This document shows positions 8,541 to 16,246 of a stretch of DNA of 49,113 bases, one piece after another. Where the stretch lies: NCBI GenBank assembly GCA_018820855.1, contig JAHJNL010000103.1:1-49113 (forward strand), in the 5' to 3' direction. Numbering within the stretch: the first letter of the stretch is position 1; each line of letters opens with the position of its first letter. The notes under the pieces were generated by a model. It was not told the DNA's origin, made no database searches, and saw only the letters and a program-made list of their open reading frames with translations. The stretch comes from Pseudomonadota bacterium. Its GTDB lineage: Bacteria > Desulfobacterota > Desulfobulbia > Desulfobulbales > Desulfocapsaceae. A program made the translations under genes and the position numbers.

Positions 8541-9374
8541 ATGGCTGCTGAACTTACAAATATCAGCAAACAGCACCCGGGAAAACTCATTATGGAAAAA
8601 CAAGATCTGGCGATTCTCTACTCCGGTGGCCCTAACTCGCTGGCTCTCTATGCATTGGCCATGGCAGGCCATCACCCCGAAATCTCCCGTCCCCATACCA
8701 TTCACCTCCTGCATATGCTCAATGGTATGGGAAGGTTTCATTCCTTTCCCCAGGCTCGTTATCAGCTCGTTCAGGGGCTTCTTGAAAGACAGTTACCCCG
8801 GCCTGATGATGCCCCGGAAACAAATTGTCTGGAACTGGATATGGGACGTCTGTTTCAGGGGTTGTGGCTGAACAGGTATGAAGAGCTAATGCCCCGGTTC
8901 GGTGGCAAAAATCTTGTCTGCGTGGCCTGTAACCTCGGAATGTATGCCAAAGGTGTACTCTACTGCATCAATCACCATGTCCCCCAGTTGCTGGCCGGTC
9001 ATGCCTCCAGTTCAACCTGTTGTCCGAAACAGGCCGACGTCTTTATGGAGCGCATTGCCGCCTTTTCCACGTTATTCGGAATTACCACTAAGTTTCCTCT
9101 TTATGGCGCGACCGAGGATGGGCATACTGTGCGCCATCTTTTGGAAGAATTCGGATTGCCCTCCACAGGCGGCGGAGAGCGTAACTGTCTCTTGGGCCAG
9201 ACCCTGACCTCGGCAGGAGAGAAGGAGGTCGGTGACTATCTGGATACGATGATTCCTCTGGTTGTTGATTACATGGAGCATACGTTGGCGGGCAGGATTC
9301 AGGATGCTGCAGCCTGTTTTTCTCCCGGCACTTGTGAGATTCTACCGCCAAAAGAGATGGCGGACCGGAAGTGA
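8541..9374 (+). CDS. PP-loop ATP-pyrophosphatase-like protein, Cys-rich
   Basis: Probable adenylating enzyme of the PP-loop (N-type ATP pyrophosphatase) superfamily, which includes tRNA thiolases, QueC and ExsB-like proteins; the specific substrate is unknown. The P-loop is SGGPNS (about 28-33) where the family usually has SGGxDS, so Asp is replaced by Asn. Cysteines are clustered: CVAC near 127-130, a CC pair near 161 (SSTCCPKQAD) and GGGERNC further on, suggesting a metal site or thiol chemistry. The start is uncertain: an ATG at 8592 (MEKQDLAILYSGG) is as plausible and fits the domain edge better; neither has a strong ribosome site. It precedes the SelD-associated flavoprotein by 117 bases, so a link to sulfur or selenium transfer is possible. 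Confidence 0.75.
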   Translation: MAAELTNISKQHPGKLIMEKQDLAILYSGGPNSLALYALAMAGHHPEISRPHTIHLLHMLNGMGRFHSFPQARYQLVQGLLERQLPRPDDAPETNCLELDMGRLFQGLWLNRYEELMPRFGGKNLVCVACNLGMYAKGVLYCINHHVPQLLAGHASSSTCCPKQADVFMERIAAFSTLFGITTKFPLYGATEDGHTVRHLLEEFGLPSTGGGERNCLLGQTLTSAGEKEVGDYLDTMIPLVVDYMEHTLAGRIQDAAACFSPGTCEILPPKEMADRK

Positions 9375-9491: not shown

Positions 9492-10592
9492 ATGGGAAAA
9501 CATCTTGTTCTGGCAGGCGGCGGTCATGCCCATATGGTCACCATGGCCAACATTCATATGATTCGCGCTCTGGGCCATCAAGTGACAGTAATTGGCCCTT
9601 CCGATTACCATTACTATTCCGGAATGGGGCCGGGAATGCTCGGAAGTGGGTATGAACCGGATGACATTCGCTTTGCCACCAGGAAAAAAGTGGAAGAGCA
9701 GGGAGGGGTCTTTGTCCTTGATTCCATTGTGGGGGTAGATCCTGTTGCCCGTGAACTGCGTCTGAAGTCAGGTAAGGCGGTGAATTATGATGTGGTCTCC
9801 TTCAATACCGGCAGTCATGTGGATATCCCGGCAATAGAGGGGAGCCGGGAACGGATTTATACAGTCAAACCCATTGAGCGTCTGTATCAGGCTCGGACTG
9901 AGATTGAGTCTCTGGCCCAAAAACAATCGGTCACCGTTGCTGTTGTCGGTGGCGGACCGGCAGGTGCTGAGGCTGCTGGGAATGTCGCCCAGCTTCTGAC
10001 TCAAACTCTTTTTCCCTCAAAAGTGCTCCTTTTTGCCGGACGTTCGCTGCTGGCTCGGTTTCCCAAGGGTGTTCGTGAGAAGACTCGGAGCCTCCTGGAA
10101 AAAAACGGAGTTTCCATTCAGGAGCAGGGGCATCTCATTGCTATCAAAGATAATTGTTTGTCTTTTGATTCCGGTCCTGAGGTGGCTGCTGATTTTGTCA
10201 TTCTGGCCACTGGGGTTCACCCCTCACCGTTTTTCCGGGAGGCAGGTCTGCAGACCGGTCCGGATGGAGGATTGCTTGTGAACCGCTTTTTGCAGCATCC
10301 TGATTATCCAGAGATATTCGGCGGTGGAGACTGTATCTGGTTCAAGGATCAACCTCTGGATAAGGTGGGCGTCTATGCCGTCCGGGAAAATCCGGTCCTT
10401 TTTCACAATCTCAAGGCCTTTCTCCAGGGCGAATCCCTGCAGGCCTTTGATCCTGGCGGGGATTATCTGCTCATCTTTAATCTCGGCAACAGGCAGGGAG
10501 TTCTGCGCAAGAAATGGTTCCAAATCACCGGGGAGGTTGCCTTCAGGATAAAAGATTGGATTGACAGAAAATTTATGAGAGATTTTCAGTAG
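9492..10592 (+). CDS. FAD/NAD(P)-dependent oxidoreductase, SelD-associated family
   Basis: Pyridine nucleotide-disulfide oxidoreductase-type flavoprotein of 366 residues. It resembles NDH-2-like proteins of the family found as the N-terminal half of SelD (selenide, water dikinase) fusions. Visible features: FAD-binding GGGHAH (9-14), the characteristic YYSGMGPGMLG segment, a second dinucleotide motif VVGGGPAGAEAAGN (about 149-162) and a C-terminal GGGDC FAD contact near 276. It stands alone here, without the SelD domain. An AAAGAGAG site precedes the ATG. Only 35 bases separate it from the selenoprotein gene, so the two are probably co-transcribed. A role in supplying reductant for selenium or sulfur metabolism is inference from family and neighbours. 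Confidence 0.85.
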   Translation: MGKHLVLAGGGHAHMVTMANIHMIRALGHQVTVIGPSDYHYYSGMGPGMLGSGYEPDDIRFATRKKVEEQGGVFVLDSIVGVDPVARELRLKSGKAVNYDVVSFNTGSHVDIPAIEGSRERIYTVKPIERLYQARTEIESLAQKQSVTVAVVGGGPAGAEAAGNVAQLLTQTLFPSKVLLFAGRSLLARFPKGVREKTRSLLEKNGVSIQEQGHLIAIKDNCLSFDSGPEVAADFVILATGVHPSPFFREAGLQTGPDGGLLVNRFLQHPDYPEIFGGGDCIWFKDQPLDKVGVYAVRENPVLFHNLKAFLQGESLQAFDPGGDYLLIFNLGNRQGVLRKKWFQITGEVAFRIKDWIDRKFMRDFQ

Positions 10593-10627
10593 CAGGATGG
10601 AAAGTTAACGATAAAGGAGAGAACGAA

Positions 10628-10966
10628 ATGATGGTTGATTGGGCATATTTTCGCAAGGGTTGAACTTCATGTACAAAGGCCCAGGAGGCTCTTGGGCGGG
10701 CAGAGGTGGGGATTGTCGAGGTTGTTGACGCACGCAACAATGTAATGAAAGCCGAAGAGGCCTGGAAGCTTTTTCAGGATGGAGACAGCATACATGTGGG
10801 TAAGGGAAAGAAGACCGTGGTCTTTACCCCGGGTCCTGCTTCTCAAGAAGAAATCCTGAAAGACAGCCTTGGGCGTACCGGTAATCTGCGGGCTCCAACC
10901 CTTCGCGTCGGTAAGGTCTTTTATGTCGGATATAATGATGAGATGTATAAGGAGTTAATGGGATGA
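10628..10966 (+). CDS. ArsC-like thioredoxin-fold selenoprotein (Sec at codon 12, UxxC)
   Basis: Reading from the ATG at 10628 through the TGA at 10661-10663 gives a 112-residue protein that begins MMVDWAYFRKGUTSCTKAQ and ends at the TGA of 10964-10966. The redox motif is U12-T-S-C15 in the position of the CxxC of thioredoxin/ArsC-fold proteins, after a beta strand and before a helix; a cis-Pro segment (RAPTLRVG) follows near residue 92. The family matches what databases call ArsC family (seleno)protein. Support for Sec: AAGGAG 8 bases before the ATG, coding sequence continuous on both sides of the TGA, a SECIS-like hairpin just downstream, and a 4-base overlap (ATGA) with the next gene. Ordinary ORF callers would start only after the TGA, at GTG 10706. 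No selA, selB or selC lies in the window, so Sec use by this organism is inferred. Confidence 0.88.
10679..10697 (+). promoter_or_regulatory. Bacterial SECIS-like hairpin
   Basis: GCCCAGG / CTTGGGC forms a 7-bp stem (one G-T wobble) with a 5-base loop AGGCT. It starts 15 bases after the in-frame TGA, and the loop GG lies about 24 bases after it. Bacterial SECIS elements are a short stem with G in a 3-14 base apical loop, about 16-37 bases from UGA, so position and loop both fit. Confidence 0.8.
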
Positions 10967-11775
10967 ATTGGAAAAGCTTGTTTACACCAGGGGCCAATAT
11001 GAGCCCGGATGAGGCCAGGGCCTTTATGGCAGAACATAGACTCGACGAGTATCAGCTCCTGGATGTGCGGCAGTTGAAGGAGTATGAAAAAGGCCATATC
11101 CCCGGAGCGATACTTGTTCCTGTAAAGGAGCTGACAGAGCGAATGGGTGAGCTGGACAGGGTGAAACCGACCCTTGTGTACTGCCACTCGGGAGTGCGCA
11201 GTAAGGCAGCTGCACAGCTCCTGCAGGCAGAGGGTTTTGCCAACATCTACAATATGAGTGGTGGCATTATCGCTTATCAGGGAGGGAAGGTCGCTGGCGA
11301 TGAAAGTCAGGGCATGGAATACTTTGTCGGCAAAAACTTCCCCGATGTCTTTCAGATGAGCTATGCCATGGAAGAGGGTTTGAAGCAGCTCTATCTTGCC
11401 TTGGAAGATCTGGTCGAAGATGACACGGCCAAGGTACTTCTTGCACGACTGGCAAAGTTTGAGGAAGGGCATAAGGCCATGCTCAGGTCCAGATTTCCTG
11501 ATAACGCAGTTGATGAGGTGACTGACAGTGAACTGCTGGAAGGCGGCTTTGAGCGGCAGCAGATCCTGGATCACTACCGTGATCAGATCACACAGCTGGA
11601 AGATATTATTCAGCTGGCAATGATGCTCGAGCTTCAGGCGTTGGATTTATACAGTCGTCTCAGTCGAACAAGCGAAGATGCGGAGAGCAAGGTGTTTTTC
11701 GAATCTATGGCCAAAGAGGAGAAGCTGCATTTGAAGTATTTGAGTGATGAGTACGATAATCTCCTGGCTGTGTAG
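10963..11775 (+). CDS. Rhodanese domain fused to ferritin-like (rubrerythrin-type) domain
   Basis: Two-domain cytoplasmic protein of 270 residues. Residues about 20-110 are a single rhodanese domain with intact active-site loop CHSGVRS (Cys near 74), able to form a persulfide. Residues about 125-268 are a four-helix ferritin-like domain with two E-E-x(2)-H-type motifs (FEEGHK and KEEKLH) plus Glu in the partner helices (AMEEG, MLELQ), consistent with a diiron site. No rubredoxin domain is present. The start overlaps the selenoprotein stop by 4 bases, indicating translational coupling. A joint role in sulfur or selenium transfer or peroxide defence is likely but not shown. A hairpin lies downstream. 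Confidence 0.9.
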   Translation: MNWKSLFTPGANMSPDEARAFMAEHRLDEYQLLDVRQLKEYEKGHIPGAILVPVKELTERMGELDRVKPTLVYCHSGVRSKAAAQLLQAEGFANIYNMSGGIIAYQGGKVAGDESQGMEYFVGKNFPDVFQMSYAMEEGLKQLYLALEDLVEDDTAKVLLARLAKFEEGHKAMLRSRFPDNAVDEVTDSELLEGGFERQQILDHYRDQITQLEDIIQLAMMLELQALDLYSRLSRTSEDAESKVFFESMAKEEKLHLKYLSDEYDNLLAV

Positions 11776-13913: not shown

Positions 13914-14260
13914 GTTTTCTCTGTGATGGATAATGAAGTATTTGCTGCGTACAGAAGAGAATAATACATCTTTGTCTTTATACCAATGGATCATTGCTCA
14001 GTAATAAATACTGAACACTTATTTTGAATGGCGAAGCGTTTCCTCTGTGAGTTGTTTTGTGATCTCTGTCAGAGAATAAAACAGATAACGCTCTTTGGCG
14101 AGTGTGTGTATCTTGCCGGAATAATATAGATAGCAACGGAATATATTTCTAATGGAGATATTGTGATTCTTTGTTGAAAGACCAATGGATGTGGGGAAAA
14201 ATTATTGACATGCAAACAGTTATCACTTACACTTGGAAATTATTATCGCAAGGAGGAGTT
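13914..14260. other. Divergent intergenic region of ABC exporter and PerR-like gene
   Basis: No gene seen. It holds the promoter of the regulator gene at 14205-14233 and A/T-rich stretches, including TAATATAG at 14122-14129. That half matches the palindrome found upstream of the desulfoferrodoxin and ROO genes. Confidence 0.5.
14205..14233 (+). promoter_or_regulatory. Sigma70 promoter of the PerR-like regulator
   Basis: Perfect TTGACA (14205-14210), 17-base spacer and TACACT (14228-14233). The start site would fall near 14240, about 20 bases before the ATG at 14261. The A/T-rich segment just downstream (14234-14248) matches 9 of 14 defined positions of the PerR box TTATAATNATTATAA, so autoregulation is possible. 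Confidence 0.75.
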
Positions 14261-14923
14261 ATGCAACTACGAATGACAAACCAGCGTGAGATGATCCTTC
14301 GGGAACTGAATAAGAGTAAGGGGCATCTCACTGCTGATGAACTATATGAGCGCGTGAGAAAAAGTATGCCCAGAATTAGTCTGGCAACAGTGTACAGGAA
14401 TCTGGAGATTCTGTCCGAGGCCGGTATTGTTCGTAAGCTGGAGATCAGTGGAAGGCAAAAGCGGTTCGATAGTGAGATTGAAGAACATGACCACATTTAT
14501 TGTGTTCAGTGTCATCACATAGAAAATCTGCTGATAGACAAGAGCAGAATGAAGGTGCCGACGCCGGATAGCGTGAAAGGCTATACCATCACAGGGTGCA
14601 GGTTGGAAGTGACCGGACTTTGCCCCGAATGTCAGCAAAAACTATCAAAGACAAAAAAGAAAACAACAAGCCAAAAAGGAGACAACATTATGGGTTGCGG
14701 ATGCAAGAAAGACAGTCTGACCGACGAGCAGAAACAGGTTCTCGAAGCAATGGCCAAGTGTGACGGACCGTGTGCTTCCAAGGATATTGCCTCAGCCACG
14801 GGTCTTGAGGCCAAAGAGGTGAGCTGTCGCATTACGGCTCTGAAGAAAAAAGGGTATGTAGACAGCCCTGTCAGGTGTAAATATGCAATCACCAGTGAAG
14901 GAAAAACTGCCATAAAGTCCTGA
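14261..14923 (+). CDS. PerR-like Fur-family regulator fused to a Cys-rich winged-helix domain
   Basis: Residues 1-140 form a Fur-family repressor: a winged helix with ISLATVYRNLEIL, then a metal-binding domain. Compared with Bacillus PerR it keeps His37 (GHLTADELY), Asp85 (RFD), His91/His93 (HDH) and both zinc CxxC pairs (CVQC, CPEC); the position of Asp104 is Glu/Asn-shifted. Peroxide sensing is therefore likely but not certain. After a Lys/Thr-rich linker, residues 144-220 form a second small helix-turn-helix domain that starts MGCGCKK and has six Cys. The ATG at 14261 follows AGGAGG and lies just downstream of a good promoter; a TTG at 14171 upstream of that promoter is rejected. Heads the oxygen-defence gene series. 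Confidence 0.85.
   Translation: MQLRMTNQREMILRELNKSKGHLTADELYERVRKSMPRISLATVYRNLEILSEAGIVRKLEISGRQKRFDSEIEEHDHIYCVQCHHIENLLIDKSRMKVPTPDSVKGYTITGCRLEVTGLCPECQQKLSKTKKKTTSQKGDNIMGCGCKKDSLTDEQKQVLEAMAKCDGPCASKDIASATGLEAKEVSCRITALKKKGYVDSPVRCKYAITSEGKTAIKS
14674..14692 (+). promoter_or_regulatory. Internal ribosome binding site inside the PerR-like gene
   Basis: AAAAGGAG (14674-14681), 8 bases, then an in-frame ATG at 14690. Initiation here would give a separate 77-residue winged-helix protein ending at 14923. The linker before it reads like translated spacer, so this may be a second gene fused in frame to the first. Confidence 0.65.
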
Positions 14924-14988
14924 CCAAAAAAAGAAGATGATTGTGCCGTAGTAGAAATCTGAAGAGACCACATCTCAAAAAAAAATAT

Positions 14989-15018
14989 CAGGCCTGCAGC
15001 CATTTTCAGGCCTGTTTT
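14989..15018. terminator. Terminator after the PerR-like gene
   Basis: Two copies of the self-complementary octamer CAGGCCTG (14989-14996, 15007-15014) pair across a 10-base loop and are followed by TTTT. In the other direction the stem is followed by a longer T-rich run, so it may work both ways. Confidence 0.6.
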
Positions 15019-15060
15019 GAGTTGCTGCCAAAGAACTGGTAGCTTTCTTCGCTTGAAGCA

Positions 15061-15075
15061 TTAATATCATAATAA
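15061..15075 (+). promoter_or_regulatory. Candidate PerR box upstream of peroxiredoxin
   Basis: TTAATATCATAATAA is a 7-1-7 inverted repeat with one mismatched pair, 35 bases upstream of the peroxiredoxin ATG. It matches 11 of 14 defined positions of the Bacillus PerR box TTATAATNATTATAA. The PerR-like gene is next door. Confidence 0.5.
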
Positions 15076-15110
15076 AATAAACATCAAAGACCCAATACTG
15101 GAGATTGAGT

Positions 15111-15707
15111 ATGAAACCGCTTGTAACTAATGAAGCGCCTGATTTTACAGCAACTGCAGTTATGCCTGACAATAGTTTTAACGAGCAGTTCAGGCTATCA
15201 GATATGCGCGGCCAGTATGTGCTGCTTTTTTTCTATCCTCTCGATTTTACGTTTGTCTGTCCGTCTGAGATCCTTGCCTTTAATAAGGCCGTTGACCAGT
15301 TTAAGAAAAAGAACTGTAATGTGGTCGGGATTTCCATTGATTCCCACTTCAGTCATCTGGCCTGGAAAAATACCCCGGTGGAGAAGGGGGGAATAGGCAA
15401 TATCCAGTTTCCGCTGGTGGCTGATCTGGATAAATCCATTTCCGAAAATTATGGAGTGCTTCTGGATGCTGGAATTGCTCTCCGTGGTCTTTATCTCATC
15501 GATAAGGAAGGAGTTATTCGTCACCAGGTGGTCAATGATCTTCCCTTGGGCAGGAATGTGACAGAGGCGTTACGTATGCTTGATGCCCTTCAGTTTACAG
15601 AAGAGTTCGGGGATGTTTGCCCGGCTAACTGGAACAGGGGCGATGATGCGATGCAGCCAACGGCAGAAGGCGTGGCAAAATACCTTTCCGAACACGCAAA
15701 GGATTGA
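15111..15707 (+). CDS. Peroxiredoxin (AhpC/TSA, typical 2-Cys type)
   Basis: Thiol peroxidase that reduces hydrogen peroxide and organic peroxides in the cytoplasm. From the ATG at 15111 it has 198 residues. The peroxidatic Cys is C50 in FYPLDFTFVCPSE and the resolving Cys is near 169 in GDVCPANW, as in typical 2-Cys enzymes. The C-terminal part (ALQFTEEFGDVCPANWNRG) is standard. A TTG at 15105 extends the frame by two codons, but GGAG is best spaced for the ATG. A PerR-box-like palindrome lies just upstream. The reductant is not encoded here; rubredoxin or a thioredoxin could serve. Confidence 0.95.
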   Translation: MKPLVTNEAPDFTATAVMPDNSFNEQFRLSDMRGQYVLLFFYPLDFTFVCPSEILAFNKAVDQFKKKNCNVVGISIDSHFSHLAWKNTPVEKGGIGNIQFPLVADLDKSISENYGVLLDAGIALRGLYLIDKEGVIRHQVVNDLPLGRNVTEALRMLDALQFTEEFGDVCPANWNRGDDAMQPTAEGVAKYLSEHAKD

Positions 15708-15720
15708 TAGTATAGTACTA
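15708..15720 (+). promoter_or_regulatory. Palindrome TAGTATAGTACTA upstream of desulfoferrodoxin
   Basis: A 5-3-5 palindrome directly after the peroxiredoxin stop, 151 bases before the desulfoferrodoxin gene. It matches the palindrome on the ROO promoter (17390-17402) in 11 of 13 bases, the differences being symmetrical. It also contains TATAGT, usable as a -10 box, but without a good -35. Confidence 0.4.
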
Positions 15721-15871
15721 GCTGTCACAATTCGGCATCTCTTTTCTGCAGTTCAGTGGGGAGTCGAGACTGGAGGGTGGCGGTTAAAAAAAGGCAAAAA
15801 CCGGATGCTGTCTGTATGTGGGACAACACGACTGTTTTGCCTCTCACGTTATCTAAGATGGAGGTGTAGAA

Positions 15872-16246
15872 ATGGCGGAAAAACTTGGAATTTATAAGTG
15901 CAACATCTGTGGAAATATTGTGGAAGTGCTGCATGCCGGCGGTGGTGATCTGAGCTGTTGTGGTGCGGAAATGGTTTATCTCAGCGAAAATACCGTGGAT
16001 GCCGCAAAGGAAAAACACGTCCCAGTGATAGAGAAGGTGGATGGGGGATATAAAGTTAGCGTAGGGAGCGTTGCCCATCCCATGACTGATGAACATTATA
16101 TTGAGTGGATAGAACTCATTGCTGGTGATACCTGCTACAGGCAGTTTCTTAATCCAGGAGATACGCCGGAGGCATTTTTCCCGGTATCGGCTGATTCAGT
16201 AATCGCACGGGAACATTGTAATCTGCATGGGGTTTGGAAGGCCTGA
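15872..16246 (+). CDS. dfx: Desulfoferrodoxin (superoxide reductase, two-iron type)
   Basis: Reduces superoxide to hydrogen peroxide without making oxygen, using electrons from rubredoxin. The 124 residues are full length for the two-centre class. The N-terminal desulforedoxin domain has C10, C13, C29 and C30. The catalytic Fe(His)4Cys site has H49, H69, H75, C116 and H119, with the E47-K48 pair of the reaction loop, all at the standard numbering. GGAGG lies before the ATG. It sits in the oxygen-defence block, with its probable electron donor (tandem rubredoxin) 94 bases downstream. Confidence 0.97.

What the first reader, a model, noticed from the sequence alone, without database searches (positions are those of the whole stretch)
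10628..10966. Selenoprotein gene with in-frame TGA in a UxxC motif
Reading through TGA 10661-10663 joins MMVDWAYFRKG to TSCTKAQ and gives a complete ArsC/thioredoxin-fold protein with U12-T-S-C15. There is an ideal ribosome site at the ATG and a 4-base overlap with the next gene. A pipeline without Sec awareness would annotate only a truncated ORF from 10706 or none.
Basis: partly seen in the sequence, partly recalled or inferred. Interest (0 to 1): 0.85.

Follow-up and report, generated by a model that had tools for sequence, protein, structure and literature searches.

The report
Known selenium-containing ArsC-like redox protein
A small bacterial gene that looks broken by a stop codon is in fact intact: the stop codon is read as the selenium amino acid selenocysteine, giving a redox protein of a family that is already catalogued.

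Summary
Window 10628-10966 (+) is one gene whose in-frame TGA (10661-10663) encodes Sec12 of a UxxC motif. The read-through protein passes NCBIfam NF041106 "ArsC family (seleno)protein" (121.9 bits, cut-off 85). The genome carries tRNA-Sec, SelB, SelA and SelD. The column is Sec in 54 of 54 above-cut-off loci read, and 77 Sec to 3 Cys in the 80 best named-genome loci. A hairpin with a GGC loop 23 nt after the UGA fits the bacterial SECIS model; over 78 Sec genes such hairpins beat synonymous-codon shuffles, and 0 of 3 Cys genes meet the model. The Cys genes form one clade, yet their genomes keep tRNA-Sec and SelB. The predicted fold is ArsC/Spx-like. The family is already in print (NF041106, UxxC, in a 2026 review), so this is a new member of a known kind. 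Less ordinary is an operon in 12 of 16 loci of this genus: flavin oxidoreductase, selenoprotein, rhodanese-rubrerythrin fusion. Partners differ in other groups, so substrate and pathway stay inferred; arsenate reduction is not supported.

The parts
10628..10966 (+). Selenoprotein gene of the NF041106 family (ArsC-related), 112 residues with Sec12, stop TGA 10964-10966 included
10661..10663 (+). In-frame TGA, Sec codon 12 of the UxxC motif
   Evidence: same column TGA in 54 of 54 loci read, 77 TGA and 3 TGC/TGT in 80
10679..10697 (+). Candidate bacterial SECIS hairpin: 8-bp stem (10679-10686 with 10690-10697), loop GGC 10687-10689, 23 nt after the UGA
10613..10619 (+). Shine-Dalgarno-like AAAGGAG, 8 nt before the ATG at 10628
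   Evidence: read directly
9492..10592 (+). Upstream gene: FAD/pyridine-nucleotide oxidoreductase (Pyr_redox_2; TIGR03169 274.3 bits, below its cut-off of 310)
   Evidence: kept upstream in 12 of 16 same-genus loci
10963..11775 (+). Downstream gene overlapping by ATGA: rhodanese domain fused to a rubrerythrin domain
   Evidence: rhodanese part downstream in 14 of 16 same-genus loci, rubrerythrin part in 13 of 16

Best explanation
The gene makes a small cytoplasmic thiol/selenol oxidoreductase of the NF041106 ArsC-related family. UGA 12 is decoded as selenocysteine by SelB and tRNA-Sec with the help of a SECIS hairpin just downstream, inside the coding region. Shown by computation: gene, family, Sec column, machinery, hairpin under selection. 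Inferred: Sec12 is the attacking selenolate and Cys15 the resolving thiol, in an ArsC/Spx/glutaredoxin-like fold, forming a selenenylsulfide in turnover. In this genus it probably works with its two operon partners, a flavin oxidoreductase and a rhodanese-rubrerythrin fusion, as a redox relay that handles persulfides or peroxide; this last step is a guess from gene order only.
For: NF041106 121.9 bits against a cut-off of 85. tRNA-Sec, SelB, SelA, SelD in the genome. Sec in 54 of 54 loci read; 77 Sec and 3 Cys of 80. W5, Y7, R9, Sec/Cys12, S14, Cys15, A35, G60, G82, G85, L87, R88, A89, P90, G101, Y107 invariant in 39 sequences. Hairpin energies -5.8 against -1.9 in synonymous shuffles over 78 Sec genes; 0 of 3 Cys genes meet the model; slid-register controls far lower. 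AlphaFold2 pLDDT 95; best solved relatives by sequence profile and by fold are Spx. Operon in the genus, with peroxiredoxin, desulfoferrodoxin and a Fur/PerR-type regulator a few kb downstream.
Against: No experiment shows Sec in the protein. Taken alone the window hairpin is not exceptional (z -1.08 and -1.66 against dinucleotide shuffles). Of the 78 Sec genes, 2 have no hairpin by my model and 19 others are matched by 11% or more of their shuffles. One Cys gene (L084) still forms 6 of 7 pairs in register A, so loss of the hairpin in Cys genes is not complete. One Sec relative, L051, has UASS, without the second Cys. The operon partners are limited to close relatives; elsewhere the neighbours are others, which weakens any pathway drawn from them. 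Structural matches are modest (best TM-score 0.56, rmsd 8.0).
Confidence: 0.93

Rival explanations
1. Pseudogene or sequencing error: TGA is a real or false nonsense codon and the two halves are relics.
For: A stop codon early in the frame; a Sec-unaware ORF caller gives only a fragment from 10706.
Against: The same TGA in 54 of 54 loci read and 77 of 80, with intact frame and conserved protein on both sides, Cys in the remaining 3, and Sec machinery in the genome.
Confidence: 0.01
2. UGA is read as something other than Sec (tryptophan, cysteine by near-cognate read-through, or another recoding).
For: No direct chemical identification.
Against: The alternative residue in homologues is Cys, the motif is a UxxC/CxxC redox motif, a SECIS-like hairpin lies at the right spacing and is favoured over synonymous shuffles, and tRNA-Sec, SelA, SelB and SelD are present. 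The frame itself ends with TGA at 10964-10966, so TGA is not generally sense.
Confidence: 0.03
3. It is a true arsenate reductase of the glutaredoxin-dependent ArsC type.
For: NCBIfam and reviews use 'ArsC' or 'arsenate reductase-like' in the name.
Against: Pfam ArsC 13.2 bits against a gathering score of 24; no match to that Pfam model in the own genome at E 0.001; the closest solved relatives are Spx, ahead of ArsC/YffB; no arsenic gene seen among the neighbours whose families I searched (most neighbours were not searched).
Confidence: 0.06
4. It is an Spx-like redox sensor that binds RNA polymerase, with the UxxC as its switch, rather than an enzyme.
For: Spx chains are the best profile and fold matches (E 1.3e-4, E 1.2e-4), and Spx senses oxidation by a CxxC at this place (recalled).
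Against: Only about 20% identity and TM-score about 0.55; residues that Spx uses to bind the polymerase were not tested; a Sec switch would be unusual for a regulator (recalled).
Confidence: 0.08

Closest known systems
NCBIfam NF041106 ArsC_rel_Se_1, 'ArsC family (seleno)protein'; listed as 'Arsenate reductase-like protein, NF041106, UxxC' in PMC13188914
   Same: Full-length match over the curated cut-off, UxxC motif, one Sec, same size.
   Different: Nothing that defines the family; the window only adds a member and a clade-specific operon.
ArsC-like / distant ArsC homolog selenoproteins of Desulfotalea psychrophila and Desulfuromonas acetoxidans (PMC1794560, 2006)
   Same: Same kind of host and same label.
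   Different: Whether those two are NF041106 members was not tested here.
Arsenate reductase 2 (cd03032, UxxC) of the Global Ocean Sampling selenoproteome (PMC2398784, 2008)
   Same: UxxC ArsC-like; the 2026 review gives this paper as the source of the NF041106 entry.
   Different: Marine metagenome fragments; no gene context seen in the passages that I read.
Spx (for example PDB 1z3e) and ArsC/YffB proteins
   Same: Same overall fold and position of the redox motif by profile and Foldseek.
   Different: Cys instead of Sec, low identity, TM-score about 0.5-0.56.

Membership tests
NF041106 ArsC-related (seleno)protein | Score over the curated cut-off (85 bits) across the whole model | tested here: met
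   121.9 bits as protein, 114.2 bits in the six-frame genome search, positions 1-107 of 107
NF041106 ArsC-related (seleno)protein | UxxC (or CxxC) redox motif near the N-terminus | tested here: met
   U12-T-S-C15; column shared by relatives
Bacterial selenoprotein | In-frame UGA at a position that is Sec or Cys in homologues | tested here: met
   54 of 54 Sec; 77 Sec and 3 Cys of 80
Bacterial selenoprotein | SelA, SelB, SelC (tRNA-Sec) and SelD in the genome | tested here: met
Bacterial selenoprotein | bSECIS hairpin: loop 3-9 nt, stem 4-16 bp, G in the first two loop positions, 16-37 nt from the UGA, MFE at or below -7.5 kcal/mol (model as in PMC13188914) | tested here: met
   Window: 8 bp, loop GGC, 23 nt, about -11.7 by a simple stacking sum, -19.1 for the 50-nt stretch. 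Alone it is only mildly better than dinucleotide shuffles
Bacterial selenoprotein | Selenium in the purified protein | not testable with these tools
   needs 75Se labelling or mass spectrometry
Pfam PF03960 ArsC | Gathering score 24 bits | tested here: not met
   13.2 bits; no genome match at E 0.001
Arsenate reductase (function) | Arsenate reduction | not testable with these tools
   assay needed
Spx transcription factor | Over the cut-off of the Spx model (NF002459, 123 bits) | tested here: not met
   12.7 bits

The most novel reading that the evidence does not exclude
In this genus the selenoprotein is the middle gene of a selenium-gated operon. The rhodanese-rubrerythrin start codon overlaps the selenoprotein stop (ATGA in 15 of 16 loci printed), so ribosomes that end at UGA 12 for lack of selenium would reach the third gene less often. 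The output of a persulfide/peroxide-handling relay (flavin oxidoreductase, Sec protein, rhodanese-rubrerythrin) would thus follow selenium supply. Against: the downstream gene has its own Shine-Dalgarno-like AAGGAG 8 nt before its ATG, so coupling may be weak.
Probability: 0.1. Interest if true: 0.5.

Novelty: new member of a known kind. Interest (0 to 1): 0.2.

Why it matters
It confirms by several independent lines that a gene which a plain ORF caller would truncate is a selenoprotein, and gives a tidy natural control: one clade changed Sec to Cys while keeping the Sec machinery, and its genes no longer meet the SECIS model. For function, the family is named after arsenate reductase but nothing here supports that activity; the rhodanese-rubrerythrin operon of this genus gives a concrete, testable substrate idea (persulfide or peroxide). 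The selenoprotein itself is not a surprise to a specialist.

Tried and rejected
Rejected: pseudogene or sequencing error (same TGA across relatives); general reassignment of TGA (the frame ends in TGA, and relatives have Cys); true ArsC membership by Pfam; a plasmid-borne gene (tblastn against 72,556 plasmid records, no match at E 0.001); an Rfam-described RNA at the site (one sub-threshold match of 8.5 bits against a gathering score of 70, chance).

A fixed functional partner across the family was sought and not found. Of 80 named loci, 77 have a neighbour called on the 3' side; the commonest are an aminotransferase-class protein (20 loci; representative PF00155, followed in 13 loci by a cluster whose representative is BioG, so probably bioF-bioG) and the rhodanese-rubrerythrin protein (16 by ORF clustering, 17 by tblastn), then a Mg-chelatase-like protein (9 loci); 5 loci have a ferritin-like protein on the 5' side. 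My ORF calls in these loci are mechanical and only one representative of each of four clusters was searched in Pfam.

Limits: the 80 named loci are the best 80 of 545 confirmed relatives, so Cys forms among the more distant ones may be under-counted, and they overlap with the 54 loci from the genome search. Of the 38 above-cut-off rows (G022, G024, G025, G026, G030) were never read; they are flagged '1 TGA' but its position was not checked. Related sequences are not independent, so the Wilcoxon p (2.7e-14) overstates the case. Registers A, B and C were picked after seeing the folds.

Papers: passages only were seen of PMC13188914 (plus part 2 of its reference list), PMC1794560, PMC9312934 and PMC2398784. 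Haft and Tolstoy 2025 on selenoprotein neighbourhoods (PMC12013261) is not held; it may already describe this context, so I do not claim that the operon is new to print. Searches for the operon or for Sec-dependent coupling listed nothing that I recognised as describing it.

Full report
Observation. The gene runs from ATG 10628 to TGA 10964-10966 on the + strand, with TGA at 10661-10663 in frame. A ribosome-binding-like AAAGGAG lies 8 nt before the ATG and the stop overlaps the next start as ATGA. Without read-through only a GTG-started fragment from 10706 is listed in this frame.

Family. The read-through protein matches NCBIfam NF041106 (ArsC family (seleno)protein) over the whole model with 121.9 bits, cut-off 85. 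It does not reach Pfam's ArsC model (13.2 bits against 24), and the own genome has no match to that model at E 0.001. In the own genome NF041106 hits once, here, with one TGA inside.

Machinery. The genome (4.8 Mb, 106 contigs, completeness 100) has a tRNA-Sec of 73.4 bits (gathering score 47), SelB at 367.7 bits (cut-off 242.25), SelA at 609.5 bits (cut-off 267.9) and SelD at 366.6 bits (cut-off 125). The SelD hit itself has one TGA inside.

Relatives. Among 56 near genomes 39 have a match and 38 are over the cut-off; among 395 genomes drawn from the phylum 36 match and 28 are over the cut-off. I read 54 distinct above-cut-off loci from these two searches: 54 of 54 have TGA in the column of Sec12. 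In genome contigs 545 candidate stretches were confirmed and the best 80 kept; of these 77 have TGA and 3 have TGC or TGT (L084, L087, L111). In a tree of 84 rows the three Cys rows form one group (support 99/81), next to a Sec row on a weaker fork (84/74), inside a larger set of Sec rows. Six genomes were searched for tRNA-Sec and SelB, including those of all three Cys loci: 6 of 6 have both over the cut-offs; two further handles were not held. So the change to Cys did not follow loss of the Sec machinery.

SECIS. After the UGA the window can form an 8-bp hairpin with loop GGC at 23 nt, which fits the bacterial model quoted in PMC13188914 (passage seen). Against dinucleotide shuffles the window alone is only mildly stable (z -1.08, 26 of 200 shuffles as good, for 66 nt; z -1.66, 19 of 200, for 46 nt). 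The stronger test keeps the protein and codon usage: over 78 Sec genes (77 and the window) the best model hairpin averages -5.8 kcal/mol against -1.9 in synonymous-codon shuffles, 42 of 78 lie in the best 5% of their shuffles and 57 of 78 in the best 10%; 2 of 78 have none; the window lies at 3%. 0 of 3 Cys genes have a hairpin that meets the model, though L084 still pairs 6 of 7 positions in one register; its loop there lacks the leading G (read). Sliding the 3' side by one to three bases cuts the number of genes with 6 of 7 pairs from 33 to at most 3 (register A), from 23 to at most 8 (B) and from 33 to at most 10 (C). In the 27 genes best described by register A every loop begins with G followed by G or U.

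Fold. AlphaFold2 on an alignment of 39 sequences gives pLDDT 95 and pTM 0.88. A profile of that alignment finds Spx chains first (E 1.3e-4) and YffB/ArsC proteins at 0.007-0.008; Foldseek gives Spx first (E 1.2e-4, TM-score 0.56, rmsd 8.0). The Sec sits at the first position of the CxxC of this fold and P90 in the invariant LRAP would be the usual cis-proline beside it (the last point is recalled, not tested).

Context. Upstream lies a flavin oxidoreductase (9492-10592) and downstream a rhodanese-rubrerythrin fusion (10963-11775). Of 16 same-genus loci (own included), 12 have the oxidoreductase upstream on the same strand, 14 the rhodanese part and 13 the rubrerythrin part downstream; over all 54 loci the numbers are 13, 17 and 16. 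In the 80 named loci the fusion protein follows in 17 and the oxidoreductase precedes within about 100 nt in 6. Elsewhere the next gene differs: a probable bioF (20 of 80) or a Mg-chelatase-like gene (9 of 80), with a ferritin-like gene before it in 5. A Fur/PerR-type regulator, a peroxiredoxin and a desulfoferrodoxin lie at 14171-16246. Nearest named rows on the tree are labelled Desulfocapsa and Desulfobulbaceae.

Reading. The gene is a genuine selenoprotein gene by every computational test available. The enzyme's substrate is not known; gene order and fold suggest thiol, persulfide or peroxide redox work, and the arsenate name is not supported by what I tested.

Known or new. The 2026 review PMC13188914 lists 'Arsenate reductase-like protein, NF041106, UxxC' and cites the 2008 ocean survey for it; that survey lists 'Arsenate reductase 2, cd03032, UxxC'; a 2006 paper lists ArsC-like selenoproteins in two deltaproteobacteria. 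The finding is a new member of a known kind. I could not see Haft and Tolstoy 2025, so I make no claim about the novelty of the operon.

Noticed in passing
L077:1486-1803 and L076 near 1498 (phylum genomes G120 and G360): A second, diverged ArsC-like group with TGA at the first position of the CxxC (UTTC). L077 scores 71.9 bits to TIGR01617 (Spx/MgsR family, cut-off 75.05) and only 38.6 to NF041106 (cut-off 85); three more weak hits over much of the model carry one TGA.
   Followed up: partly
window 8541-9374: 277-aa protein with an SGGPNS stretch that resembles a PP-loop (by eye) and many cysteines; no Pfam match at E 0.01 and no NCBIfam match at E 1e-5.
   Followed up: partly
window 14171-16246: Fur/PerR-type regulator (best models below cut-off), peroxiredoxin (below cut-off) and desulfoferrodoxin (TIGR00320 over cut-off): an oxidative-stress group a few kb downstream.
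   Followed up: partly
G000:C91:9507-10448 (L019): The genome's own SelD carries one in-frame TGA, so it is probably a selenoprotein too.
   Followed up: no
L051: Relative with UASS in place of UxxC: Sec without the resolving cysteine.
   Followed up: no
window 9492-10592: The upstream oxidoreductase is close to TIGR03169 'Nterm_to_SelD' (274.3 bits, cut-off 310), a family that is, by its name, found fused to the selenium-donor enzyme SelD; here it stands beside a selenoprotein gene instead.
   Followed up: no
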